12,411 nt of DNA, from NCBI GenBank assembly GCA_024640925.1, contig JAHEEB010000034.1, forward strand, positions 1 to 12,411. The letters run 5' to 3'. The notes beneath the pieces were generated by a model. It was not told the DNA's origin. It saw only the letters and a list, made by a program, of their open reading frames with translations, and made no database searches. The stretch comes from Bacteroidota bacterium (lineage in GTDB: Bacteria; Bacteroidota; Bacteroidia; Bacteroidales; UBA10428). The translations under genes and the position numbers were made by a program. Below are positions 2-12,411 of this stretch, piece after piece (position 1 is the first letter of the stretch; every line of letters begins with the position of its first letter).

Positions 2-1483
2 TGGCTTAAAATTGCCGATAATACTGATCTTGTGCCTGAAGCCGCAGAAAAACTATGGGGTGGTGCCGGATCAACTCCTGCCGTTACACTTGGAGGAATA
101 GACAAAGAAGGGAATGATGCGGTAAATGACCTAACGTACATATTTTTGAAGGTTACAGAACTTATGTGCTTGCGCGATCCAAGCGTAAATGCCCGGTACA
201 ATTATGAAGTAAACGATAAAGCATACCGTCAGAGGGTTGCCGAAGTAATTATCAATACCAAAGCAATACCTGCATTTCATAACGATGTTACCGATATTCA
301 TACACTCGTAAACCAGGGAATTACGCTGGAACATGCCAGAGATTTTGCTATTGTTGGGTGTGTTGAGCTGGCAAGTACAGGCAGGGATTATGTTGCCTCA
401 TCATCCATAATGTTTAACCTATCGTCCGTGTTGGAACTTACCCTTTTTAATGGTAAAAAGTTCACTATGGGCGACGAACAGGTTGGTCCCTCTACCGGAG
501 ATCCACAGCAATTCACCACTTTCAGCCAATTCTACCAGGCCTTTGTAACCCAATTGACCTGGCTTTTAGAACAGGCAATTGACATCAATGAGAAAATGGG
601 ATCTGTTCACCAGGAAATAGCTCCTACTCCTCTCCTGTCGGCATTTTTTGAAGGTCCTTTGGAACAGGGAAAAGATTTGATTTTTGGTGGTGCACTTTAT
701 AATTCATCCGGAGCCAGCTTTCTTGCTTATCCCGATGTCTGTGATTCGCTTAATGCCATTGAACAGGTTGTTTATACTGAAAAAAAATGCAGTATGGCAG
801 AACTGATACATGCAATTAAGCAAAACTTTAAAGAACCTGCACAAATTACTTTGCAGGTATATCTGAAAAATAAAACAGCAAAATTTGGCACTGAAAACCC
901 CACAGCAATAAAGAATTCGAAACAACTGGTAACTGATATCTACAATATTCTTCAATCGCATAGAAACTATAGAGGAGGCACCTATCGCCCTGCATTCTGG
1001 ACTATGACAACACATGCAGGCCAGGGAAAACTGGCAGGAGCTATGCCAAGCGGGCGAAAAGCAAAGGAGGTTTTTTCGAGCGGCATTACACCGGCATCAC
1101 AGTCAGCTCAAAGCCTAACGGAAGCATTTAATGCAGTTGCTTCACTCGATCACAAATGCATTCCCGGAGGGTGGGCACTAAACATCAAATATTCTCCATT
1201 TACCTCTAATGATAATGTGGCTGAATATCTGCAAAAGTTTGGCGATCTGATAGAAGGGTTTTTCCGGAAAGGCGGCATGCAGGTACAGTTTAACATCCAG
1301 GATTATGAGACTCTGATAGATGCTAAAAAACATCCGGAAAAATATCCGGAAATGATTGTAAGGGTATCGGGCTATTCGGCTTATTTTAAAGATTTGAACG
1401 AAGCAATGAAAGATGAGCTGATTACAAGAACCCAGTATAACCTGTTTTCGGGGAAAGCAGTACCATTACCTGCTGATATTTAA
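2..1483 (+). CDS. Glycyl radical enzyme (pyruvate formate-lyase/dehydratase superfamily), 5' end cut by window edge
   Basis: This is the C-terminal part of a glycyl radical enzyme, an oxygen-sensitive enzyme that uses a backbone glycyl radical to make a thiyl radical on an active-site Cys. The frame is open to the left edge, so the GTG at 32 is internal, not a start. Counting from that GTG, the Cys-loop motif is VGCVELAS (C110, with E112 two residues later). The glycyl radical motif is RVSGYSAYF (G447, codon 1370-1372), 36 residues from the C-terminus as expected. Both essential residues are present, so the enzyme looks functional. The Cys-x-Glu signature is shared with dehydratases and lyases such as glycerol/propanediol dehydratase and choline TMA-lyase; pyruvate formate-lyase itself has two adjacent Cys. 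I cannot assign the substrate. About 490 residues are visible, against roughly 800 for a full-length family member. The matching activase lies downstream. Confidence 0.93.
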   Translation, partial: WLKIADNTDLVPEAAEKLWGGAGSTPAVTLGGIDKEGNDAVNDLTYIFLKVTELMCLRDPSVNARYNYEVNDKAYRQRVAEVIINTKAIPAFHNDVTDIHTLVNQGITLEHARDFAIVGCVELASTGRDYVASSSIMFNLSSVLELTLFNGKKFTMGDEQVGPSTGDPQQFTTFSQFYQAFVTQLTWLLEQAIDINEKMGSVHQEIAPTPLLSAFFEGPLEQGKDLIFGGALYNSSGASFLAYPDVCDSLNAIEQVVYTEKKCSMAELIHAIKQNFKEPAQITLQVYLKNKTAKFGTENPTAIKNSKQLVTDIYNILQSHRNYRGGTYRPAFWTMTTHAGQGKLAGAMPSGRKAKEVFSSGITPASQSAQSLTEAFNAVASLDHKCIPGGWALNIKYSPFTSNDNVAEYLQKFGDLIEGFFRKGGMQVQFNIQDYETLIDAKKHPEKYPEMIVRVSGYSAYFKDLNEAMKDELITRTQYNLFSGKAVPLPADI

Positions 1484-1497
1484 TTGTCTGATGATTG

Positions 1498-1576
1498 TTT
1501 ACCACGATGAACACAGAGAAAGCCAAGAGCTCACAAAGTTCGATATATCAAAGAGACAATATCCCTTGTGCTCTTA
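1498..1576. repeat. Degenerate interspersed repeat (CCACGA-n-ACACAGAG type) in the gap after the glycyl radical enzyme
   Basis: The 120-base gap between the first two genes starts with a purine-rich stretch of the form ACCACGATGAACACAGAG. It contains a bulged inverted repeat: AAGAGC-TC-ACAAAG at 1525-1538 pairs with CTTGTGCTCTT at 1565-1575. The same vocabulary recurs in a larger palindromic element at 3047-3173. From general experience, such ACCACGAAG/ACACAAAG sequences are scattered through many environmental Bacteroidota genomes. Their function is unknown. The element could form a weak RNA hairpin between the first and second cistrons. Confidence 0.45.
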
Positions 1577-1603
1577 AAATAAAACTTGATTAAAAACATT
1601 CTT

Positions 1604-2056
1604 ATGAATTGGTTAATACATCCGGTAAAAAGCTTTTTGATGCGAATGGCTCAGAAGAAGTTTGTGAAGATTTTGCAGGAAGAAACCCTTGATGTCTTTC
1701 TTGTAACCCTGCTTAGATTAATGGATTTGTACTTTACCCTGAATAAAAAATACCGAAGAAATATTGAAAATTTTGAAGCACGCTATTCTTTTAAAAGCAA
1801 AGACAACAAAATAGATGCAGGGGTAATTTTTTCAGATTCGAAAATGAAAGCAGAAAACCACTCCATCGATAACACCAATGTTACTGTAGTATTCAAAGAT
1901 GGGAAAGCATTAAAGAATTTTTTGTTTTCCGAATCGCCCGACATTATTGGGACAATACTCAATAGCGATGTACAATATACCGGAAACCTGAATTATCTTT
2001 CTAAATTTGCCTATATGGCTAAACATTTACAATTACAGTTTGCTCCTAAAAAATGA
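1604..2056 (+). CDS. Small SCP2-like putative lipid-binding protein between glycyl radical enzyme and activase
   Basis: A 150-residue protein starting at the ATG at 1604; a TTG six codons upstream (1586) is possible but less likely. The N-terminal 50 residues are basic and amphipathic (NWLIHPVKSFLMRMAQKKF) and lack a cleavable signal. The C-terminal 90 residues alternate short strands and helices and carry a pattern like the SCP2/sterol-carrier fold: a strand ending VTVVFKDG, then a helix, then VQYTGNLNYLSKFAYM, the usual 'small x Gly, low-level loading' end of that domain. SCP2 domains bind fatty acyl chains, sterols or other hydrophobic ligands. The stop overlaps the start of the activase gene in an ATGA, so the two are probably translationally coupled. 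I infer a role in presenting a hydrophobic substrate to the glycyl radical enzyme, or holding it near a membrane. The SCP2 call rests on pattern recognition only. Confidence 0.6.
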   Translation: MNWLIHPVKSFLMRMAQKKFVKILQEETLDVFLVTLLRLMDLYFTLNKKYRRNIENFEARYSFKSKDNKIDAGVIFSDSKMKAENHSIDNTNVTVVFKDGKALKNFLFSESPDIIGTILNSDVQYTGNLNYLSKFAYMAKHLQLQFAPKK

Positions 2057-2877
2057 ACAACACTCCATACATATTTGATATAGTGCGTGGCTCATTTGAT
2101 GATGGGCCGGGGATTAGAACAACTGTTTTTTTTAAAGGTTGCCCGCTAAAATGCTCATGGTGCCATAATCCCGAATCGCAACTGTATCGTGCGGAAATAG
2201 CATGGAATGAAAACTCCTGCATCAAATGCAATGCCTGCAAAACAGTATGTCCGAATGGCGCCATCTCCGATAAAGACTCACATAGAATAAACAGAATTTT
2301 ATGTATTGGATGTGGCAAGTGTGTTGATGTTTGTGTTCATGCGTTAAAACGAATTGGAACAATCTATTCTCCAGAAGGACTGGTAGAAATCCTCATGCGC
2401 GATAAAGTGTTTTATGATACCTCAGGTGGTGGCGTGACTTTTTCGGGAGGAGAACCCTTTTCACATTTGTCCTATCTTTTAGAGGTATGCAGGGAACTTA
2501 AAAAACAAGGTATCCATTTGGCAGCCCAGACAAGCGGATTTTTCAATTACGAGTTATTTGAACAAACCATTCAACCCTATATCAATATTATCTATTTCGA
2601 TCTGAAAATAATTAACAGAAACCAGCATTTCTTCTATACAGGTCAATACAACGATCTTATATTAAAAAACCTGCGCAAACTTGCATCGTATAAACAACAG
2701 AAACTGATTGTCCGTACACCACTGATTCCAAAAATAACAGCAACCGACGAAAACATGGCAGCTATAAAAACACTGTTAGCTGACCTTAAAATTGATGAAT
2801 ACGAAACGCTTGAATATAACCCTATGGGACAGCATAAATATACTATTATTGGAAAAAAACAAACTCATGTGATTTAA
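2053..2877 (+). CDS. Glycyl radical enzyme activating enzyme (radical SAM, ferredoxin-type)
   Basis: A 274-residue activase that would use a [4Fe-4S] cluster and S-adenosylmethionine to abstract hydrogen from the partner's glycine. The radical-SAM motif Cx3Cx2C is C30-x3-C34-x2-C37 (GCPLKCSWCHNP). Two ferredoxin-type motifs follow: C56/C59/C62/C66 and C84/C87/C90/C94. These are typical of activases for the dehydratase/decarboxylase-type enzymes and absent from the pyruvate formate-lyase activase PflA. The SAM-binding GGEP motif is at 132-135, after GGGVTFS. The start ATG overlaps the stop of the SCP2-like gene by 4 bases. The protein ends soon after the YNPMGQHKY segment, so its C-terminus is somewhat shorter than the approximately 300 residues usual for the family, but no core motif is missing. 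The partner is almost certainly the upstream glycyl radical enzyme. Confidence 0.93.
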   Translation: MNNTPYIFDIVRGSFDDGPGIRTTVFFKGCPLKCSWCHNPESQLYRAEIAWNENSCIKCNACKTVCPNGAISDKDSHRINRILCIGCGKCVDVCVHALKRIGTIYSPEGLVEILMRDKVFYDTSGGGVTFSGGEPFSHLSYLLEVCRELKKQGIHLAAQTSGFFNYELFEQTIQPYINIIYFDLKIINRNQHFFYTGQYNDLILKNLRKLASYKQQKLIVRTPLIPKITATDENMAAIKTLLADLKIDEYETLEYNPMGQHKYTIIGKKQTHVI

Positions 2878-3046
2878 CCCAAATTCAAATACCCTATAAA
2901 AGTATAATATAATTAACCTGGAAATACAGCTGCAAAGCTTATAAACAAATTGATAGGCCTATCCAAAGATATCTTTTATAGTATGGAAGAATATGAAATT
3001 TGATTTTGCTTTGAAGATAAATTAGGCTTTTTTCACTAAGAGGTGT

Positions 3047-3173
3047 CCAAAAAGTTGATAAATAGCCACGAAGACTCTAAGACACAAAGGTATCACTAAG
3101 GTTAATGTCTTTTAAATAAGATCTTTGTGAATTCTTTGGGGCTTTGTGCCTTGGTGGCAAATTTACTTTTTGG
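3047..3173. repeat. 127-bp imperfect palindromic element with CCAAAAAGT termini
   Basis: CCAAAAAGT at 3047-3055 is exactly mirrored by ACTTTTTGG at 3165-3173. Between them, the left arm (AGCCACGAAG, then GACACAAAGG) is roughly complementary to the right arm (CTTTGTGCCTTGGTGGC). The whole is therefore a degenerate palindrome that could fold into a long hairpin. No coding capacity is seen. The sequence vocabulary matches the shorter fragment at 1498-1576. It may be a non-autonomous, MITE-like or REP-like interspersed element; no target-site duplication is obvious. Confidence 0.5.
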
Positions 3174-3243
3174 TCTCAATGATCAACAATGGATTTGGCT
3201 TTAGCCATGCAATTCTTTATAATCTCTCAAAGAAATAACCGGA

Positions 3244-3278
3244 AATTCACGAATAACATCATGTTTTATTCGTGAATT
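3244..3278. repeat. Perfect 13-bp inverted repeat (hairpin)
   Basis: AATTCACGAATAA at 3244-3256 and TTATTCGTGAATT at 3266-3278 are perfect reverse complements around a 9-base loop (CATCATGTT). The right arm continues into TTCGTGGCT, again the 'attcgtgaattcgtggc' vocabulary of an interspersed repeat. No T-run follows on either strand, so it is not a canonical intrinsic terminator, although it sits between the activase and a gene pointing towards it. Confidence 0.6.
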
Positions 3279-3354
3279 CGTGGCTATAAAATAAAAACGA
3301 ATATTACTAATGCTTGATTTGAGTTTAACCTACAAGTCAGAATATTATTTCAAT

Positions 3355-3898: not shown

Positions 3899-4696
3899 AT
3901 GAAAGCCGGAACATACCCTAAAACAAATTGTTTCCTGATTTTAACTGTTGCCCTGTTGAACTTTTGTTCATGCGATTCATCAAATGATGACAAGAAAAAA
4001 ACAACCGAAGAATACTCCACAGGAACATTTTTCGATGATTTTGAAGGTAGCTCCATCAACGATACAGTCTGGCAGGTAGCAGGCTGGTACGAACACGGGG
4101 GACAAACCAGTGCGGAACGCTGCTATGCCGAAAACGGATATCTTACCATGAAATTCATAAACGACAATGGTACTTACCTGAGCTCTGCCATTCAGACAAG
4201 AAAAGAATTTCTTTATGGCCGCTGGGAAGCCCGGCTGAAACCCTCTTCAGTGCCAGGCGTTCTTAACTCGTTTTACACCATTGACTGGAACGATACTTCT
4301 GACAACAGTGCCGACGACGATGGCACAAAGCAAGAGATAGATATCGAATTTCTTACGTATGTTTTCGGAAATAATACCGGCAAAGTTCATTATGCTGTTC
4401 ATGCTTCGGGACTGGAAAGTTTTAATACTAACCCCGATATCGACCTGAATTTCGATCCTTCGGCCGATTTCCATGTATGGGGTTTCGAAATTACCCCCGA
4501 CCATATCGAATGGTTTGTCGACGACACCACTCTCCTCACTTACAACTATAGCGAGCACGATGTAAAAATCGATTCGCCCTACCAGCTAAAACTTAATTTC
4601 TGGTCGAAAGAAGAATGGATAAACGGTCCGCCAACTTCGGGTGTTGAATGTGTGTATTTGATTGACTGGATAAAGTTTGTGCCGTATGATGAGTAG
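3899..4696 (+). CDS. GH16 family glycoside hydrolase lipoprotein (lichenase-type beta-glucanase candidate)
   Basis: A 265-residue lipoprotein. Residues 1-24 form a signal peptide ending FCS, with lipidated C25; DSSNDD follows, resembling the Bacteroidota surface-export signal (Cys, Ser, then acidic residues). A short linker leads into a single GH16 jelly-roll domain of about 220 residues. The catalytic motif is EIDIEF, with E146 as nucleophile, D148 as helper and E150 as acid/base. The spacing is ExDxE (regular strand), as in lichenases and xyloglucan transferases, rather than the ExDxxE bulge of laminarinases, agarases and carrageenases. The length is normal. I infer an endo-acting enzyme on a beta-1,3/1,4-glucan or similar, anchored in the outer membrane facing outwards. 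No SusC/SusD pair or other carbohydrate gene is adjacent. TATCTTTA at 3871-3878 is a possible but poorly spaced -7 box. Confidence 0.88.
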   Translation: MKAGTYPKTNCFLILTVALLNFCSCDSSNDDKKKTTEEYSTGTFFDDFEGSSINDTVWQVAGWYEHGGQTSAERCYAENGYLTMKFINDNGTYLSSAIQTRKEFLYGRWEARLKPSSVPGVLNSFYTIDWNDTSDNSADDDGTKQEIDIEFLTYVFGNNTGKVHYAVHASGLESFNTNPDIDLNFDPSADFHVWGFEITPDHIEWFVDDTTLLTYNYSEHDVKIDSPYQLKLNFWSKEEWINGPPTSGVECVYLIDWIKFVPYDE

Positions 4697-5241: not shown

Positions 5242-5577
5242 ATGACTATTTCTGAACGCATAAGATTAGTAAGACAGCAAAAAAATATTTCGCAAAATGA
5301 ACTTGCAAAGACTGCCGGAATAAATGTAAAGAGCCTTTCGAGGTACGAACTTGGCACAAGTATTCCTCCGGCTAATGCATTGAAGGCTATTGCTGATGCT
5401 TTGGGGGTTTCTTCTGATACTCTTTTGAGTGATGACGTTGCCCAAATAAATGACAAAGAATTGCTTAAAAAATTTGAAGCTATTCAAGACATGGGCGGGG
5501 ACACTAAGAAAATGATTATTAGCTTTCTTGACCTTGCTATTCGTGATTATAAAGCAAAACAGGCTTACGCTGGATAA
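5242..5577 (+). CDS. XRE-family helix-turn-helix transcriptional regulator
   Basis: A 111-residue protein. Residues 2-60 form a Cro/CI-type HTH: IRLVRQQKNISQNELAKTAG gives helices 1-2, and the recognition helix region is NVKSLSRYELGTSIPP, followed by ANALKAIADALGVSSDTLL. The tail (residues 70-111) is helical and probably dimerises. It is the first gene of a tight three-gene unit, with only 10 bases from its tandem stop codons (TAATAA) to the antitoxin ATG. In this position it most likely represses the operon, supplying the DNA-binding function that the next gene seems to lack. It could instead be an unrelated regulator that happens to adjoin the module. Confidence 0.85.
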   Translation: MTISERIRLVRQQKNISQNELAKTAGINVKSLSRYELGTSIPPANALKAIADALGVSSDTLLSDDVAQINDKELLKKFEAIQDMGGDTKKMIISFLDLAIRDYKAKQAYAG

Positions 5578-5587
5578 TAACCCAAAT

Positions 5588-5788
5588 ATGAAGCAATTAA
5601 CATTAAATATAAGCGACAGTAAATTCCGTACTTTTTTGGAATTTATTAAAACACTTGACTACGTGGAAATACCTGAAGCCGACAAAAAAACTTTGAACGA
5701 ACTGCAAAACAGCCTGAACCAGGTTAAACTGATGCAAGAAGGTAAAATTGAAAAACAACCGGCCGAAGACTTCTTAAATGAGTTATAG
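5588..5788 (+). CDS. Putative antitoxin of a RelE/HigB-type toxin-antitoxin pair
   Basis: A 66-residue acidic protein starting at the ATG at 5588 (KQLTLNIS). The longer frame from 5528 would overlap the XRE gene by 50 bases and is unlikely. It opens with a strand (LTLNISD), then a helix (FRTFLEFIKTLDYVEI), an acidic helical stretch, and a C-terminal GKIEKQPAEDFLNEL tail of the kind that wraps around RelE-type toxins. No HTH, ribbon-helix-helix or AbrB motif is recognisable. Its last 11 bases overlap the toxin gene, the classic antitoxin-first arrangement with coupled translation. Identification rests mainly on context, size and charge. Confidence 0.72.
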   Translation: MKQLTLNISDSKFRTFLEFIKTLDYVEIPEADKKTLNELQNSLNQVKLMQEGKIEKQPAEDFLNEL

Positions 5789-6107
5789 CGTTTACCCTAC
5801 ACCAGACTTTAAAAAATACTTCAAGAAGCTAAACAAAAAGTACCCTTCTTTGAAATCCGATCTACAAGGGCTTATTAAAATCCTAAAAGAACAACCAGAT
5901 TCAGGAATTCACTTGGGCCATAGTATTTATAAAATACGCATGGCCATAACCTCTAAGGGCAAAGGTAAATCCGGTGGCGCCAGGGTTATCACTTATATGG
6001 TTACCGAAGATAACGAGGTTTATCTGGTTTTTATTTACGACAAAAGCCAACTTGATAACATTACCAAAGAACAAATTTTAGAGCTGCTTAAAGAGGCAGG
6101 GTTATAA
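5778..6107 (+). CDS. RelE/HigB-family toxin (putative mRNA interferase)
   Basis: A 109-residue basic protein with the features of the RelE/HigB-like toxin family. An N-terminal helix pair (PDFKKYFKKLNKKYPSLKSD) comes first. The core strand segment is IYKIRMAITSKGKGKSGGAR, with the conserved GKSGGARV and its invariant Arg. Then comes VYLVFIYDKSQLDN, with the conserved YDKS and a short C-terminal helix (TKEQILELLKEAGL). Members typically cleave mRNA on the ribosome; some relatives (ParE) poison gyrase, and the two cannot be told apart by eye. The start overlaps the antitoxin end by 11 bases. Length and motifs are complete, so the toxin looks intact. Confidence 0.87.
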   Translation: MSYSVYPTPDFKKYFKKLNKKYPSLKSDLQGLIKILKEQPDSGIHLGHSIYKIRMAITSKGKGKSGGARVITYMVTEDNEVYLVFIYDKSQLDNITKEQILELLKEAGL

Positions 6108-6812: not shown

Positions 6813-8210
6813 CTATTTTTTTATTATTGACGTTGGACCAGTACTAATATATGGTCTTCCTCCATAATTATCTCGTGTTGCTTCAGGGTAATCATTTTTG
6901 CTCAATTTCACTGCAACAGGTGTTTCTACATTTTGTATAACTATTCTTTCTCCATTATATATATAACTTTCTGCACCAAATCTCAATTTTGCATTAAATG
7001 TATAAGAGGATGGACTATCTAAACATTCGGCTCCATGTCCAAACTCATGCAATAAACCCAATGCTGGTGATTGAAAACCTTCTGTCCCTTCAGAGTTATT
7101 ATGAACCTTTAATGCTGCTCTTGGATTCCAAGAAATAGTTCCAATATTAATTGTATTATTTTCATCTAAGTAATCAAATGGTTGATATATACTTTGATCC
7201 CAAGCTTCTTTAGTGTTTTCGAACCCTTTTCCTCGTTTCTCTTGTGTTTCTTTAACACTAATAAATTTTGAGGTTTCAGCTAATTCATCAATTACCCCGG
7301 CAGCGCCATTTTCGCTTAAATAATTATAAGCGGCATAAAAGTCTTTAATAAATTGAGCATCTCCATCTTGTACTTTGTAATTTGAATTGAAGGTATGTGT
7401 TTGAGTATTTCCGTCAGCATCCTGATAGGATATAACAATAGTATCTCCAGCTGGATCAATAACTAATATCGGATTATTTGCAGCATAACTATATGGGTTA
7501 ATACTATAAAAATCTTCTGATCTTGGGTCTTGTACTTGCCACCTCCCGAGCGCAGGATCATACATTCTGGCGCCGTAATCTAACCACTCAGTACCATTTT
7601 GCAATTCCTTTCCATTGTACAGGTATTTGTTCGTAGAACCCAGGTCTTGTATTGGTTCCTGGCGAAGCCCAAAGGGGTAATAATCGCTTACCTGATCGAT
7701 TTCGCTTGTGGCTAGCACACCATTTTTGTCTGCATCGCGGAATACCAACCGGGTATTTCCCAGATGATCCTTTAGGAAGTACTCATAACTGTATGTCGAA
7801 CCGTTGATAAGTACCCTGCCTTCGCTTGTAAGCATATAGGTAAGAACTCCATCCTCATAAACAAATGGCCCGATATAATCGATAATTTTACCTGTGGGGT
7901 CAATATTCTGTAATTTTTTACCTGCAGCATCGAAACGATACAATATGTTATTGCCATTGGAAAAAACAATGGTATCCGGTAGGTTCAGGTAATTATAATC
8001 GATTTCCGAAATACTCTTGTTGTAATCGAATGACAAATTACCATTGCCATCGTAAGAATATTCTGTTGTCGATTGAGTGGTCAGTTCTGTAAAGCCTGAG
8101 GTTTGAGAACCGGCATCAGAAACAGTTAATATCTGATTGCTGTTATTTGAATTCTCATACTTATAAGTCAAGTTATCCATAGATACACCACTGGCATTGT
8201 TACGTTGCAA
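6813..8210 (-). CDS. Rhs/YD-repeat protein C-terminal part with HExxH metallopeptidase toxin domain, 5'-truncated
   Basis: The C-terminal 465 residues of an Rhs polymorphic toxin. Residues 45-100 carry YD-type repeats (YSYDGNGNLSFDY). The Rhs-associated core follows: DHLGNTRLVF at 148-157, DYGARMYDPALGRWQVQDP at 211-229, and NPYSYAANNPILVIDPAGD at 238-256. The variable tip (257-465) contains SPALGLLHEFGHGAE, with the zinc motif H388-E389-x2-H392 and a likely third ligand E429 in NVETPVA. This resembles gluzincin-type effector proteases such as the M91/NleD-like domains known in Rhs tips. The frame does not start properly: upstream of the TTG at 8210 the coding sense continues (PNGNITN) to an in-frame TGA at 8232-8234, and no YD sequence is found beyond it in any frame. 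Full-length Rhs proteins are usually far longer, so this is a displaced tip or pseudogene. If expressed, ATG 8180 is the likeliest start. Confidence 0.85.
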   Translation of the reverse strand: MQRNNASGVSMDNLTYKYENSNNSNQILTVSDAGSQTSGFTELTTQSTTEYSYDGNGNLSFDYNKSISEIDYNYLNLPDTIVFSNGNNILYRFDAAGKKLQNIDPTGKIIDYIGPFVYEDGVLTYMLTSEGRVLINGSTYSYEYFLKDHLGNTRLVFRDADKNGVLATSEIDQVSDYYPFGLRQEPIQDLGSTNKYLYNGKELQNGTEWLDYGARMYDPALGRWQVQDPRSEDFYSINPYSYAANNPILVIDPAGDTIVISYQDADGNTQTHTFNSNYKVQDGDAQFIKDFYAAYNYLSENGAAGVIDELAETSKFISVKETQEKRGKGFENTKEAWDQSIYQPFDYLDENNTINIGTISWNPRAALKVHNNSEGTEGFQSPALGLLHEFGHGAECLDSPSSYTFNAKLRFGAESYIYNGERIVIQNVETPVAVKLSKNDYPEATRDNYGGRPYISTGPTSIIKK

Positions 8211-8412: not shown

Positions 8413-9627
8413 ATGGAAGACTGGCAAAATTGGCTAAAAAATAAAAGGGTGGTGTTTTTTGTGGCAGAGACTGTGCCGTCGATTGCTGGTAGTGGTATTA
8501 ATGCTTTCCGATTTGCCAAATATCTCTGCAGTTATACAAAACAAGTTAAAATTGTTTGTTTTAATTATAATAACAAATTACCTAAATATGAGCTTATTGA
8601 AGGTGTTGTTATAAAACGCATAAGGTATTACAACAAATCGCTTTCATCAAAACTTCTGTCACTTCCTTTCCTAATATACAATTATTGTAAAGAAACAATT
8701 TTATGTAATATTTCATTTGTTTATGGAGCATATATGCCTGGATATGAAACCATACTCTTTGTATCATGGCTATTTGGTAAGAAAACAATTTTTCAATCAA
8801 CATTATTAGAAGATGATGATATTGAAAGTATTTTAAACAAAAAACCAAAATCTTTACGCATAATTAAAAAATCTTTATTTAAGAAAATATCCGTATATTA
8901 TGCTATTAACAAGAGATTTGAAGAAAAATGCATAAATTCTTTAGGTAAAAAAGTCAACATTATTCTAAGGACTCAGGGTGTTAATGCAGAAGGATTCGCT
9001 CCTCAAGATTTAATAACTATTAAGAGCATTAAGAATTTATATAATATCAAGGATAATAAATTTGTAATATTATCTGTGGGGATTCTTATTAAGAGAAAAG
9101 GTTATCTTGATATCTTCCAATATTTAAAAGAATTACCCTTCCCTTTTATTTATATCGTTGCCGGATTAGACCATCAGGATATATATCATCGAAGTTCTGA
9201 TCAAGAATTAAAGGAGATGGAATTAATAAAAACAACCGGTAAAACTATTTTAGGAGATAAAGTTCAATTTTTGGGACATATAAATGATTTGAAGAAAATT
9301 TATTCTATTGCCAATGTTTACTTACATTGTGCGACACAAGAAGGTACTCCTGGAGCAATTCTTGAAGCAATGAGTAGCCGTTTACCAGTTGTTATGAGAA
9401 AAATTGAAGGAACAGAATTTATATTCAAAAACGAAGAAAACTGCTTGATATTTAATCATCCTAACGAATCAATATCTTGTTTAACAAGGATACATAATGA
9501 ATTCCCTTTTATAAAAAGATTAACAGAAAATGCGCATAATCGTATTCTAACGTTTGAGAGTTTTGAAATGATAAGTGCGCTGATCTTAAATGTTTTATAT
9601 GGACCACCAAAAAAAAATATTTATTAA
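8413..9627 (+). CDS. GT4-type glycosyltransferase (GT-B fold)
   Basis: A 404-residue retaining glycosyltransferase, probably adding a sugar from a nucleotide-sugar donor to a lipid-linked glycan on the cytoplasmic face of the membrane. The N-terminal domain begins with a Rossmann strand (KRVVFFVAET), then the loop SIAGSGINAFRFAKYL. The C-terminal domain begins with FVILSVGILIKRKGYLDI, the usual 'G r l x x x K G' segment. The donor-binding EX7E motif is E310-GTPGAIL-E318, followed by AMSSRLPVV. The domain order and length fit the family. It is the first visible gene of the polysaccharide cluster, and its end overlaps the next gene by 29 bases. Neither sugar nor linkage can be predicted. The base composition is much more AT-rich than in the left half of the window. 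Confidence 0.88.
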   Translation: MEDWQNWLKNKRVVFFVAETVPSIAGSGINAFRFAKYLCSYTKQVKIVCFNYNNKLPKYELIEGVVIKRIRYYNKSLSSKLLSLPFLIYNYCKETILCNISFVYGAYMPGYETILFVSWLFGKKTIFQSTLLEDDDIESILNKKPKSLRIIKKSLFKKISVYYAINKRFEEKCINSLGKKVNIILRTQGVNAEGFAPQDLITIKSIKNLYNIKDNKFVILSVGILIKRKGYLDIFQYLKELPFPFIYIVAGLDHQDIYHRSSDQELKEMELIKTTGKTILGDKVQFLGHINDLKKIYSIANVYLHCATQEGTPGAILEAMSSRLPVVMRKIEGTEFIFKNEENCLIFNHPNESISCLTRIHNEFPFIKRLTENAHNRILTFESFEMISALILNVLYGPPKKNIY

Positions 9628-10711
9628 TGCTTCGACTGTATTAATTTCGGGAGGATTAATATTAACGCAGAATATTCTAATTGAACTTCAAAAAGAAAGT
9701 ACATTCGAACTTTATGTTATTTGCCCTAATAAGAAAAAATATAGCCCCTATATTAACTCAAAAACTACTATTAAGGTAGTACCAAAATTTCTTTTAAGAA
9801 GGATAAATCGTCTCCTTCTTGATTATATTTGGATACCAAAACTAATAAGAAGAATAAAACCTCATTTGGTTTTAAGTCTTGGAAATCTTCCCTCAATAAC
9901 AAAATACAAACAATTATATCTTCACGATAATCCATACCTCACCGAACAATTTTATAAATTTTCAATGTCGTATTTCACTAGTATTGTTCATTATCTAAGA
10001 AACAAGGAAACTTTTTCAAGAATTAAGTATGTAAATCATATCATAGTTCAGACGGAATATCAGAAAAACAAACTTAATATTATTGATAAAAATATTCTTA
10101 TAACTATTTTGTCACCTTCCATTCCTACGTTTCCGATTCTGTTAAAAGAAACACAGTATGGAAATCTCTCAAAAGGGAAAATTAATGTCTTATGTCTATC
10201 AAGGTATTATGAACATAAGAATCTTGAAAAATTAGTTGACGTTTCGAAACTGATTAAGAAGAAACAGTTGGGTTATACAATATACCTAACTATTGATTCG
10301 AAAAATCATAAAAAAGCAAAAAAGATATTAGAAACCATAAAGGAAAATTCTTTAGAAAACATATTAGTTAATCTTGGCAAAATCAATCATGATAATGTTC
10401 CTGAAATAATGAAACACATGGATGCTATAATTGTTCCTTCGTTTCTTGAATCATTCTCACTTGTATTTATAGAAGCCTGGTTACACAAAAAGCCATTATT
10501 TGTTTCAGATATCGAAAGTATAAGAAGTGCATGTAACAAGGCCGCTTTTTATTTCAATCCAAATTCAGAGGAAAGCATTCTAAATACATTAATCAATGCT
10601 TTTGAAAATTCTGAACAACTATCTGAGATTGTTAAACAAGGTGAAAAAAGGTTAGGTGAACTAAATGAATGGAATGATTATATAAAAATTGTAAAAAAAA
10701 CCCTGGAATGA
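9599..10711 (+). CDS. GT4-type glycosyltransferase
   Basis: A 370-residue glycosyltransferase starting at the ATG at 9599 (DHQKKIFINASTV); an ATG three codons earlier (9590) is equally in frame. The N-terminal acceptor domain opens FINASTVLISGGLILTQN, then DYIWIPKLIRRIKPHLVLSL, the pattern of mannosyl- or rhamnosyltransferase-like GT4 proteins. The C-terminal domain has INVLCLSRYYEHKNLEKLVD, and the EX7E motif is E284-SFSLVFI-E292 in VPSFLESFSLVFIEAW. It overlaps the previous glycosyltransferase at its start and the sulfotransferase at its end (ATGA, 4 bases), so the three are co-translated. It probably acts in sequence with its neighbours on one repeat unit; the specificity is unknown. Confidence 0.87.
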   Translation: MDHQKKIFINASTVLISGGLILTQNILIELQKESTFELYVICPNKKKYSPYINSKTTIKVVPKFLLRRINRLLLDYIWIPKLIRRIKPHLVLSLGNLPSITKYKQLYLHDNPYLTEQFYKFSMSYFTSIVHYLRNKETFSRIKYVNHIIVQTEYQKNKLNIIDKNILITILSPSIPTFPILLKETQYGNLSKGKINVLCLSRYYEHKNLEKLVDVSKLIKKKQLGYTIYLTIDSKNHKKAKKILETIKENSLENILVNLGKINHDNVPEIMKHMDAIIVPSFLESFSLVFIEAWLHKKPLFVSDIESIRSACNKAAFYFNPNSEESILNTLINAFENSEQLSEIVKQGEKRLGELNEWNDYIKIVKKTLE

Positions 10712-11652
10712 AAATAATCCTGCTCTCATATATTAATCGTTCGGGATCGACCTATTTAGTCAACCAGCTTAGTAAAATACCAACTATTTGTGTTTGTCCT
10801 GAAGCTGATATATTATATGAATTGCTACTATCATATTCGAACTTTAAAATAAAACAACATCATTTAAATAAATGGAAATCTTTATTTGAATCAGATCCAA
10901 AATTTAAATCCTGGAAACTTCCTGTCGAATCTATAATTAACGCAAATATTGTTGGTGAAAACTCCTATGTTTTGTTTATAAATATTCTAATCAAATTCCA
11001 AAAGAGATATTTCCCTAATTGTGATACCATTATTTATAAACAGAATTTTTTATATAAAATATTTAATGAAATAAAGTCCATTTCAGAAAACATATTTTTT
11101 GGTATATCATTAATTAGAAGTCCGCTTGGAATATATAATTCGCAAAAACATACAATTAATCCGCAACTTTGTAAAATAATGAGCAAAAATCCTCTCCAAT
11201 TAATAAAAGAATGGAATAATTTTATTAAAACAGATTATAGTATGACTGATAATTATACGGTGGTAATATATGAAAAACTTATTACAGAATTTGAGGAATC
11301 TATGGATAATATTTTACAATTTTTAAAAATTAGTGGACCTTTTCAAAAATATACTTTCTCTGAAGCAACGCATATAAATTGGATCGATTTGAATCATATA
11401 CCTATACACCAGAATATAAATAAAACACCTGTTATAGGTAATATCATTAAATGGAAAGAAGGATTAAATAATGCCGAATATTTAGTTATAAAATTAAACT
11501 ATGTTAATAATAAATATTATAAAATAAATGAAGGTGCAAAACATTTAACATTAGGGATCATCTTTTATTATTTATATTGTTTATTCTTAAAAATTCAACA
11601 CTCTACTATTAAAACTTTACATAAAATAGTTTTTTGGATAAAAAACTATTAA
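10708..11652 (+). CDS. Sulfotransferase family protein (PAPS-dependent)
   Basis: A 314-residue protein with both PAPS-binding signatures. The 5'-phosphosulfate loop is SYINRSGSTYLVNQL (RSGSTYL at 11-17). The 3'-phosphate site is SLIRSPLGIYNSQKHT, with R137 and S145 eight residues apart as in classical sulfotransferases. It would transfer sulfate from PAPS to a sugar hydroxyl. Unusually, the C-terminus has a hydrophobic stretch (TLGIIFYYLYCLFL, about 281-294) and a basic tail, suggesting membrane association near the lipid-linked glycan. The ATG overlaps the stop of the upstream glycosyltransferase. The sequence is very AT-rich. Catalytic specificity is not predictable; some family members act on non-carbohydrate substrates, but the context favours a glycan. 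Confidence 0.8.
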   Translation: MKIILLSYINRSGSTYLVNQLSKIPTICVCPEADILYELLLSYSNFKIKQHHLNKWKSLFESDPKFKSWKLPVESIINANIVGENSYVLFINILIKFQKRYFPNCDTIIYKQNFLYKIFNEIKSISENIFFGISLIRSPLGIYNSQKHTINPQLCKIMSKNPLQLIKEWNNFIKTDYSMTDNYTVVIYEKLITEFEESMDNILQFLKISGPFQKYTFSEATHINWIDLNHIPIHQNINKTPVIGNIIKWKEGLNNAEYLVIKLNYVNNKYYKINEGAKHLTLGIIFYYLYCLFLKIQHSTIKTLHKIVFWIKNY

Positions 11653-11662
11653 ATTTTTAATA

Positions 11663-12411
11663 ATGATACAAGAAAATTACTCAGTCTTACATATAGGTTA
11701 CCCTAAAACTGCAACTACCTGGTTCCAGGAACAATTTTATCCAAAAATCAAGGATATTGAATTTTATGATCAGAAAAGGAGCATACAGTCTTTAGGTATT
11801 GAATGGCAAAACATTAAAAATACAAAAAACATATTGAAGTCTTTAAAATTAAGTAATAAACGATTGGTCATCTGCGATGAATCAATGGTTGGAAAAATAG
11901 AATGGATTGAAAAAAACGCTCGATCATTTAAAGAAATCTTTTATCCTGCACAAATAATAATTCTTATAAGAAACCAGATGGATAAATATATATCGAATTA
12001 CAGTCAATATATAAAATCGGGAGGTACAGCTAAATTTATTGATTACCTATTTACCCCTTCATATCAAATTTTTAGAGGAGAACAACATAGATATGATATG
12101 ATAATTAGTACCTATAAAGAATATTTTGGAAATTCCAATGTATATGTTTATTTGTATGAGGACTTATGTTTCGATTATGAAAATTTCATTAAAAAATTTT
12201 GCTCAAATCATAACTTTATATTGGAAAACGGTCAAATAAATATGGAGAAAGTAAATATAAGATTATCAAGAACATTATTAAACTTAAAAAGACTAAGTAA
12301 CTTTTTTACAAGATATCAACCTATACAAACTGATTTTAATAATCCAAAACATACAAGATATTTTTTTCATATACCATATTGGTATCAAATAATGAATATT
12401 TTATTTGAAAA
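11663..12411 (+). CDS. Second sulfotransferase, 3' end cut by window edge
   Basis: An open frame starting at the ATG at 11663, ten bases after the previous stop, and running without a stop to the right edge (249 complete codons). The N-terminus VLHIGYPKTATTWFQEQFYP is the classical PAPS 5'-phosphosulfate loop (YPKTATTW at 13-20). The 3'-phosphate site is IIILIRNQMDKYISNYSQY, with R103 and S111 again eight residues apart. It differs strongly from the preceding sulfotransferase, so it is not a recent duplicate. Together they suggest that the glycan is sulfated at two positions or on two sugars. The C-terminus is not visible, so completeness cannot be judged. Confidence 0.85.
   Translation, partial: MIQENYSVLHIGYPKTATTWFQEQFYPKIKDIEFYDQKRSIQSLGIEWQNIKNTKNILKSLKLSNKRLVICDESMVGKIEWIEKNARSFKEIFYPAQIIILIRNQMDKYISNYSQYIKSGGTAKFIDYLFTPSYQIFRGEQHRYDMIISTYKEYFGNSNVYVYLYEDLCFDYENFIKKFCSNHNFILENGQINMEKVNIRLSRTLLNLKRLSNFFTRYQPIQTDFNNPKHTRYFFHIPYWYQIMNILFE

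What the first reader, a model, noticed from the sequence alone, without database searches (positions are those of the whole stretch)
2..2877. SCP2-like lipid-binding gene inserted between a glycyl radical enzyme and its activase
The three genes look like one operon, with a 4-base overlap between the SCP2-like gene and the activase. Characterised glycyl radical systems usually pair the enzyme with an activase plus microcompartment, transporter or small-subunit genes. I know of no characterised one with a sterol-carrier-type protein. The arrangement suggests a hydrophobic or membrane-embedded substrate, for example a lipid head group, fatty chain, sterol-like or aromatic compound, delivered by the small protein. 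The SCP2 assignment is by pattern only.
Basis: partly seen in the sequence, partly recalled or inferred. Interest (0 to 1): 0.7.

Follow-up and report, generated by a model that had tools for sequence, protein, structure and literature searches.

The report
Lipid-carrier-coupled glycyl radical enzyme module
An oxygen-sensitive radical enzyme, found in many unrelated bacteria, comes with its own sterol-carrier-type lipid-binding protein, either as a neighbouring gene or fused into one chain, which points to an unrecognised anaerobic chemistry on membrane-type lipids.

The parts
2..1483 (+). Glycyl radical enzyme, C-terminal 493 residues; the gene is cut by the window start (5' part probably on contig C978 of the same genome)
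   Evidence: Pfam PF02901 2.2e-80 and PF01228 7.8e-25; below every NCBIfam equivalog cut-off listed; C978/L053
356..367 (+). GCVE motif: radical-relay Cys (codon 359) and conserved Glu
   Evidence: aligned with Cys433/Glu435 of glycerol dehydratase 1r8w
995..1015 (+). FWTMTTH signature; the pattern W-[ST]-[MIV]-[STA]-x-H is shared by both SCP2-linked clades and absent from the five reference GREs in the alignment
1361..1378 (+). RVSGYS glycyl radical loop (Gly codon 1370)
1604..2056 (+). SCP2-fold small protein, 150 aa (ATG start; the ORF list starts it at TTG 1586)
2053..2877 (+). GRE activase (radical SAM with two ferredoxin-type 4Fe-4S motifs), overlapping the SCP2-like gene by 4 bases
   Evidence: NCBIfam PFLE_PFLC 276.9 bits, cut-off 174.35; Pfam; motifs

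Best explanation
This is a lipid-linked glycyl radical eliminase module. The activase puts a radical on the C-terminal Gly (inferred from family). The radical passes to the active-site Cys, which abstracts a hydrogen next to a hydroxyl; the conserved Glu and His assist loss of a leaving group on the neighbouring carbon, giving an aldehyde or ketone (inferred from the retained GCVE Cys/Glu and the His of the dehydratases; shown only as sequence conservation). The SCP2-fold protein, separate here and fused in the sister clade, binds the hydrophobic tail of an amphiphilic substrate, probably drawn from a membrane, and presents its alcohol-bearing head to the enzyme (inferred; the predicted fold, constant pairing and fusions are shown). 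In the window's clade, phospholipase-C-like DUF6765 or another metallophosphoesterase may first remove a phosphate head group. The best-fitting substrate class is a glycerolipid, such as an alkylglycerol or other ether lipid, or a long-chain diol.
For: SCP2 fold. GRE upstream in 19 of 20 homologous loci. In 297 Desulfobacterota genomes all 12 hits of at least 45% identity to the L007 GRE (one of them L007's own genome) lie beside an SCP2-like gene. N-terminal fusion: 18 loci found by the domain, then 10 of 10 intact ORFs of about 1,000 aa picked by GRE similarity, and 118 of the 120 best hits; C-terminal fusion in P0092. Separate and fused types are sister clades split from six other GREs. Pocket changes against glycerol dehydratase in the separate clade: His281 to Met, Ser282 to Ala, Tyr339 to Thr/Val, Asp447 to Ser, with Cys433, Glu435 and His164 kept. 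DUF6765 near the module in 11 of 29 separate-type loci, two of which were fetched for their DUF6765. A lipoprotein-like family occurs in 9 of 297 genomes, all 9 among the 15 with the separate gene. Fused clade: GlpK, MlaE, AFOR, acyl-CoA ligase, SDR and TetR neighbours.
Confidence: 0.58

Rival explanations
1. The SCP2-like part is not a substrate carrier but a membrane anchor, assembly factor or radical-protecting subunit, playing the part of the small subunits of benzylsuccinate synthase and alkylsuccinate synthase; the substrate may be small and soluble.
For: Known GRE accessory subunits (HiPIP- and rubredoxin-like) contact or cover the catalytic subunit (passages of PMC12358834). The N-terminal stretch of the small protein is moderately amphipathic (moment about 0.3-0.4) and rich in Lys/Arg by reading.
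Against: SCP2-fold domains with known roles hold acyl, alkyl or isoprenoid chains (recalled; the closest match is the alkylsulfatase C-terminal domain). Pocket residues of the enzyme changed towards less polar ones. Neighbours are lipid-type genes.
Confidence: 0.2
2. The module is biosynthetic: it modifies the cell's own membrane lipids or quinones (as UbiJ/UbiT-type SCP2 proteins do in ubiquinone synthesis, recalled) rather than degrading lipids.
Against: Patchy distribution: 0 of 59 other relatives and 0 of 295 other genomes of the phylum have the SCP2-like gene, though some other Bacteroidota records do. Four fused paralogues plus the separate system sit in one Desulfoluna genome. GlpK, acyl-CoA ligase, AFOR and TetR neighbours look catabolic.
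Confidence: 0.15
3. Chance or operon-hitchhiking adjacency: the SCP2-like gene has its own unrelated function.
For: Three of 15 genomes keep the SCP2-like gene with no intact GRE beside it.
Against: 19 of 20 loci, 12 of 12 close GREs, N-terminal fusions in 118 of the 120 best hits and one C-terminal fusion.
Confidence: 0.03
4. A GRE that works on a hydrophobic non-glycerol substrate (long-chain or aromatic alcohol, steroid, alkane-type hydrocarbon).
For: Several records come from deltaproteobacterial MAGs labelled CSMAG (cold-seep catalogue, recalled) and one named hit is Desulfatibacillum aliphaticivorans. 8iof, named benzylsuccinate synthase alpha, scores 321 bits. The SCP2 fold binds many hydrophobic ligands (recalled).
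Against: MasD (9o8u) and TutD (4pkc) score about 200 bits against 364-388 for the five best chains, which include PFL2, CutC, HypD and glycerol dehydratase. The GCVE Cys/Glu pair and the dehydratase His are kept. GlpK neighbours.
Confidence: 0.2

Closest known systems
B12-independent glycerol dehydratase (Clostridium butyricum, 1r8w) and archaeal PFL2 (2f3o), GRE eliminase branch
   Same: Fold family, GCVE Cys/Glu, dehydratase His164, glycyl radical loop; 367 and 388 bits
   Different: Substrate-contact positions His281, Ser282, Tyr339 and Asp447 (roles recalled) are replaced; a partner SCP2-fold protein or domain is present; the clade is separate
Choline TMA-lyase CutC, HypD, HpsG/HpfG and other named GRE equivalogs
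   Same: Same superfamily and activase type
   Different: The equivalog cut-offs listed are missed by more than half (e.g. L007: HypD 442 against 1100, CutC 431 against 1050); no SCP2 partner known (recalled)
Benzylsuccinate / (1-methylalkyl)succinate synthases
   Same: GREs that act on hydrophobic substrates and need small accessory subunits
   Different: Their small subunits are HiPIP- or rubredoxin-like Fe-S proteins (passages of PMC12358834), not SCP2-fold; TutD and MasD score about 200 bits, though 8iof, named benzylsuccinate synthase alpha, scores 321
SCP2-fold domains: alkylsulfatases Pisa1/SdsA1 (C-terminal), human MFE-2 SCP-2L, UbiJ
   Different: 6-13% sequence identity in the first 31 rows; none of those is tied to a radical enzyme (recalled); Pfam SCP2 matches weak
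Zinc-dependent phospholipase C family (for neighbour DUF6765)

Membership tests
Glycyl radical enzyme superfamily | PFL-like barrel domain plus C-terminal glycyl radical domain with RVxGYx loop | tested here: met
   PF02901 271.6 bits and PF01228 87.9 bits, over gathering scores; RVSGYS at 1361-1378
Glycyl radical enzyme superfamily | Active-site Cys opposite the Gly | tested here: met
   GCVE aligned with Cys433 of 1r8w
Glycyl radical enzyme superfamily | Dedicated radical-SAM activase | tested here: met
   Gene 2053-2877, PFLE_PFLC above cut-off
Glycyl radical enzyme superfamily | Glycyl radical observed by EPR | not testable with these tools
   Experiment needed
Named GRE equivalogs (CutC, HypD, HpsG/HpfG, IAD, HPAD, PFL) | NCBIfam equivalog cut-off reached | tested here: not met
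   Full-length relatives L007 and L077 and four fused proteins are all below cut-off; window fragment too
Glycerol/diol dehydratase GREs | Substrate-contact residues His281, Ser282, Asp447, Tyr339 (1r8w numbering; roles recalled) | tested here: not met
   Met, Ala, Ser, Thr/Val at those positions in the separate clade
SCP2 fold | Predicted structure superposes on SCP2 domains over most of the domain | tested here: met
Pfam PF02036 (SCP2) | Score above the gathering threshold | tested here: not met
   Window protein no hit; 11 of 35 homologues weak, best E 0.0019; 3 of 10 homologues scored in full, 13.5, 16.0 and 18.2 bits against 21.3; 9 of 23 fused weak, best E 0.0012. UniRef does name two Desulfoluna homologues SCP2
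SCP2 fold | Binds a hydrophobic ligand in its cavity | not testable with these tools
   No ligand data
Zinc-dependent phospholipase C (DUF6765 neighbour) | Fold and zinc-ligand set | tested here: inconclusive

The most novel reading that the evidence does not exclude
This is the missing class of anaerobic enzymes for ether and glycerolipid breakdown: a glycyl radical lyase that takes a membrane-derived alkylglycerol or diether lipid from an SCP2 domain and eliminates the alkyl chain (or water) next to a glycerol hydroxyl, giving an aldehyde or ketone that goes to aldehyde ferredoxin oxidoreductase, acyl-CoA ligase and glycerol kinase, the oxygen-free counterpart of alkylglycerol monooxygenase.
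Probability: 0.2. Interest if true: 0.92.

Novelty: new variant of a known kind. Interest (0 to 1): 0.74.

Why it matters
The characterised GRE eliminases that I know of act on small polar molecules, and the GREs that act on hydrocarbons add them to fumarate (recalled). A whole GRE lineage with its own lipid-binding domain, separate or fused, in records named Bacteroidota, Deltaproteobacteria, Nitrospirae, Acidobacteria, Firmicutes, Dehalococcoidia and an archaeal MAG, would extend radical eliminase chemistry to membrane-type lipids. It would give a gene-level handle on how amphiphiles such as ether lipids are broken down without oxygen in sediments, which as far as I recall has no known enzyme. 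None of the 120 best fused proteins has an SCP2 domain in the precomputed Pfam column, so the connection is hidden from that annotation; for the separate protein UniRef names two Desulfoluna homologues SCP2, without the link to a GRE.

Tried and rejected
SCP2 by single-sequence Pfam, NCBIfam and PDB-sequence search of the window protein: nothing useful; the profile search of PDB sequences gave only weak hits, mostly FtsH. The bfi and Tad5 hits of the small protein were weak and dropped. DUF6765 against PDB sequences: only weak, apparently chance hits. No Rfam family over threshold and no tRNA in the window.

Rejected: chance adjacency; membership in a named GRE equivalog; fumarate-adding GRE (with the exception of 8iof told above). 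The AFOR/GlpK/MlaE cluster was not counted as five independent cases, because L086-L088 are close kin and the flanks beyond GlpK are syntenic housekeeping genes (those flank genes judged by reading).

Literature: ten searches listed no paper on a GRE with an SCP2 protein or on GRE cleavage of ether lipids. The library is open-access PMC only; several listings were capped (15 of 37, 12 of 23, 15 of 651, 8 of 320). Only listings and abstract starts were seen, apart from passages of PMC13274423 and PMC12358834.

Dropped rows: L003's GRE is split by a frameshift and L054's is cut, so both were left out of the tree, as were the window's N-terminal part and the cut or split GREs of L010, L011, L014, L017, L071, L074 and L076; the tree holds 45 chosen rows. 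L054's split DUF6765 was left out of the alignment. L080 gave no intact GRE ORF. L059-L076 were picked by their SCP2-like hit (three of them, L071, L074 and L076, cut by contig ends), so only L080-L091, picked by GRE similarity, are an unbiased test of fusion. In those, 10 of 10 intact GRE ORFs of about 1,000 aa had the domain (L081-L090; L081 only with a refined profile that also spans the linker to the GRE); the ordinary 848-aa GRE L091 did not. Of six contigs fetched for their DUF6765 (L053-L058), two show a GRE beside it (L053, L054), two end just after it (L055, with the lipoprotein-like gene upstream, and L056) and two show no module gene (L057, L058).

The p-values ignore kinship between genomes. 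The SCP2 structure was compared only by VIA-align on Foldseek's ranking; the plain Foldseek search never ran.

Full report
What is there. The window starts inside a glycyl radical enzyme (GRE) gene: 2-1483 encodes its C-terminal 493 residues, with PFL-like and Gly_radical domains, the GCVE motif (Cys codon 359) and the RVSGYS radical loop (Gly codon 1370). A 120-base gap follows, then a 150-residue protein (1604-2056; the TTG at 1586 is an unlikely start, because most homologues begin at the ATG). The activase follows at 2053-2877, overlapping by four bases, with the CX3CX2C motif and two 4Fe-4S motifs. The rest of the GRE is most probably on contig C978 of the same draft genome (81.91% complete). 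There, reading towards the contig end, come a DUF6765 gene and then a 335-codon GRE frame (62% identical to relative L007 over 318 residues), and the two contig ends are 23 bases apart on the L003 relative. L003, whose SCP2-like protein is 78% identical, has the same order: DUF6765, GRE, SCP2-like, activase.

The pairing is real. 20 homologous loci were found in one genome per species: records named Bacteroidota, Deltaproteobacteria/Desulfobacteraceae/Desulfoluna, Nitrospirae, Acidobacteria, Chitinispirillaceae, Methylococcaceae and others. In 19 of 20 a GRE 56-82% identical to the window's lies upstream, in L012 with one small gene between; the 20th contig starts too close. The activase lies downstream in 14 of 20; it is not adjacent in the three Desulfoluna loci, L004 and L020, and L018 ends early. 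In 297 Desulfobacterota genomes, 15 have a strong separate SCP2-like gene. All 12 GRE hits of at least 45% identity to L007, its own genome included, lie next to one. The other three of the 15 are G148 (GRE N-terminal remnant running into the SCP2-like gene), G251 (GRE C-terminal remnant) and G082 (activase but no GRE). The gene is rare near the window's organism: 0 of 59 other relatives and 0 of 295 other genomes of the phylum.

The fusion. The same profile found the domain at the N-terminus of GREs of about 1,000 aa. Ten further intact ORFs of this size, chosen by GRE similarity and not by the domain, all had it, one (L081) only with a profile refined on the other fusions; with the 18 found by the domain itself that makes 28. 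A database search with one fused protein gave 578 hits at E<=1e-100 among 7,999 candidates scored. Of the 120 listed, 118 have the domain N-terminally and the two without are short. Named sources include Firmicutes, Dehalococcoidia, Myxococcales, a Freyarchaeota archaeon and Desulfatibacillum aliphaticivorans, and none of the 120 has SCP2 in the precomputed Pfam column. Of 120 separate-type relatives listed, one, P0092, carries the domain at the C-terminus instead (a single sequence, so an artefact is possible). In a tree of 45 chosen rows, the separate type (19) and fused type (20) are each one clade and together split from six other GREs with 100% SH-aLRT (quick method, long branches among the references, a false join is possible there).

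What the enzyme looks like. The five closest PDB chains score 364-388 bits (PFL2 2f3o, CutC 9f3w, HypD 6vxc, glycerol dehydratase 1r8w, 9rco); TutD and MasD score about 200, while 8iof, named benzylsuccinate synthase alpha, scores 321. The NCBIfam equivalog cut-offs are missed by a wide margin. Against 1r8w (active-site roles recalled), Cys433, Glu435 and Gly763 are kept in every row that covers them and His164 in all but one fused row. In the separate clade His281 becomes Met, Ser282 Ala, Tyr339 Thr/Val and Asp447 Ser. The fused clade changes the same positions differently. Both clades share a W-[ST]-[MIV]-[STA]-x-H signature absent from the five references. This fits an eliminase with a larger, less polar pocket, which is inference.

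Mechanism. Shown: genes, fold of the model, conserved pairing, fusions, conserved catalytic residues, neighbours. Inferred: the SCP2 domain holds the tail of an amphiphilic alcohol; Cys, Glu and His carry out hydrogen abstraction and elimination at its head; the carbonyl product passes to AFOR or SDR. A glycerolipid or ether lipid fits the phosphoesterase, GlpK, MlaE and acyl-CoA ligase neighbours best, but long-chain diols, quinone-type and other hydrophobic alcohols are not excluded.

Known or new. Accessory subunits of the hydrocarbon GREs are HiPIP- or rubredoxin-like (passages of PMC12358834). Ten literature searches listed no GRE-SCP2 pairing (open-access papers only, some listings capped). 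I rate it a new variant of a known kind.

Noticed in passing
window 5242-6107: HTH_3 protein (5242-5577), small ORF (5528-5788) and RelE-type toxin gene (5778-6107), which look like a toxin-antitoxin region.
   Followed up: no
window 3899-4696: Glycoside hydrolase family 16 gene (3.9e-24).
   Followed up: no
window 6813-8210: RHS-type fragment (sub-threshold RHS_repeat match) with a weak Peptidase_M91-like tail.
   Followed up: no
window 8413-12409: By reading only: two glycosyltransferase-like genes and two sulfotransferase-like genes in one run, possibly a surface polysaccharide cluster.
   Followed up: no
window 3040-3300: Intergenic stretch with similar short segments in both orientations (a 'CACGAAG ... 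GACACAAAGG' type and its inverse), seen by eye.
   Followed up: no
P0092, residues 856-999: Separate-type GRE with the SCP2-like domain fused at the C-terminus, the opposite order to the large fused clade.
   Followed up: partly
L093:3370-4662 and kin L092, L094, L095, L097: A calcineurin-like phosphoesterase (L093 tested, kin by clustering) lies directly upstream of the GRE where other loci have DUF6765.
   Followed up: partly
L062, L064, L066, L072, L083-L088 and others: TetR regulator near 12 of 28 fused GREs; one tested member is weakly like FasR, KstR and FadR lipid regulators, all below cut-off.
   Followed up: partly
L035:1191-1893: Apparent deletion: about 100 GRE N-terminal residues run into the SCP2-like gene, with DUF6765 upstream; could be an assembly error.
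   Followed up: partly
L003:1132-2348 and L012:3526-4080: Related membrane-type proteins (by reading) of about 185 aa near the module in a Bacteroidota and a Nitrospirae genome, with no Pfam match.
   Followed up: no
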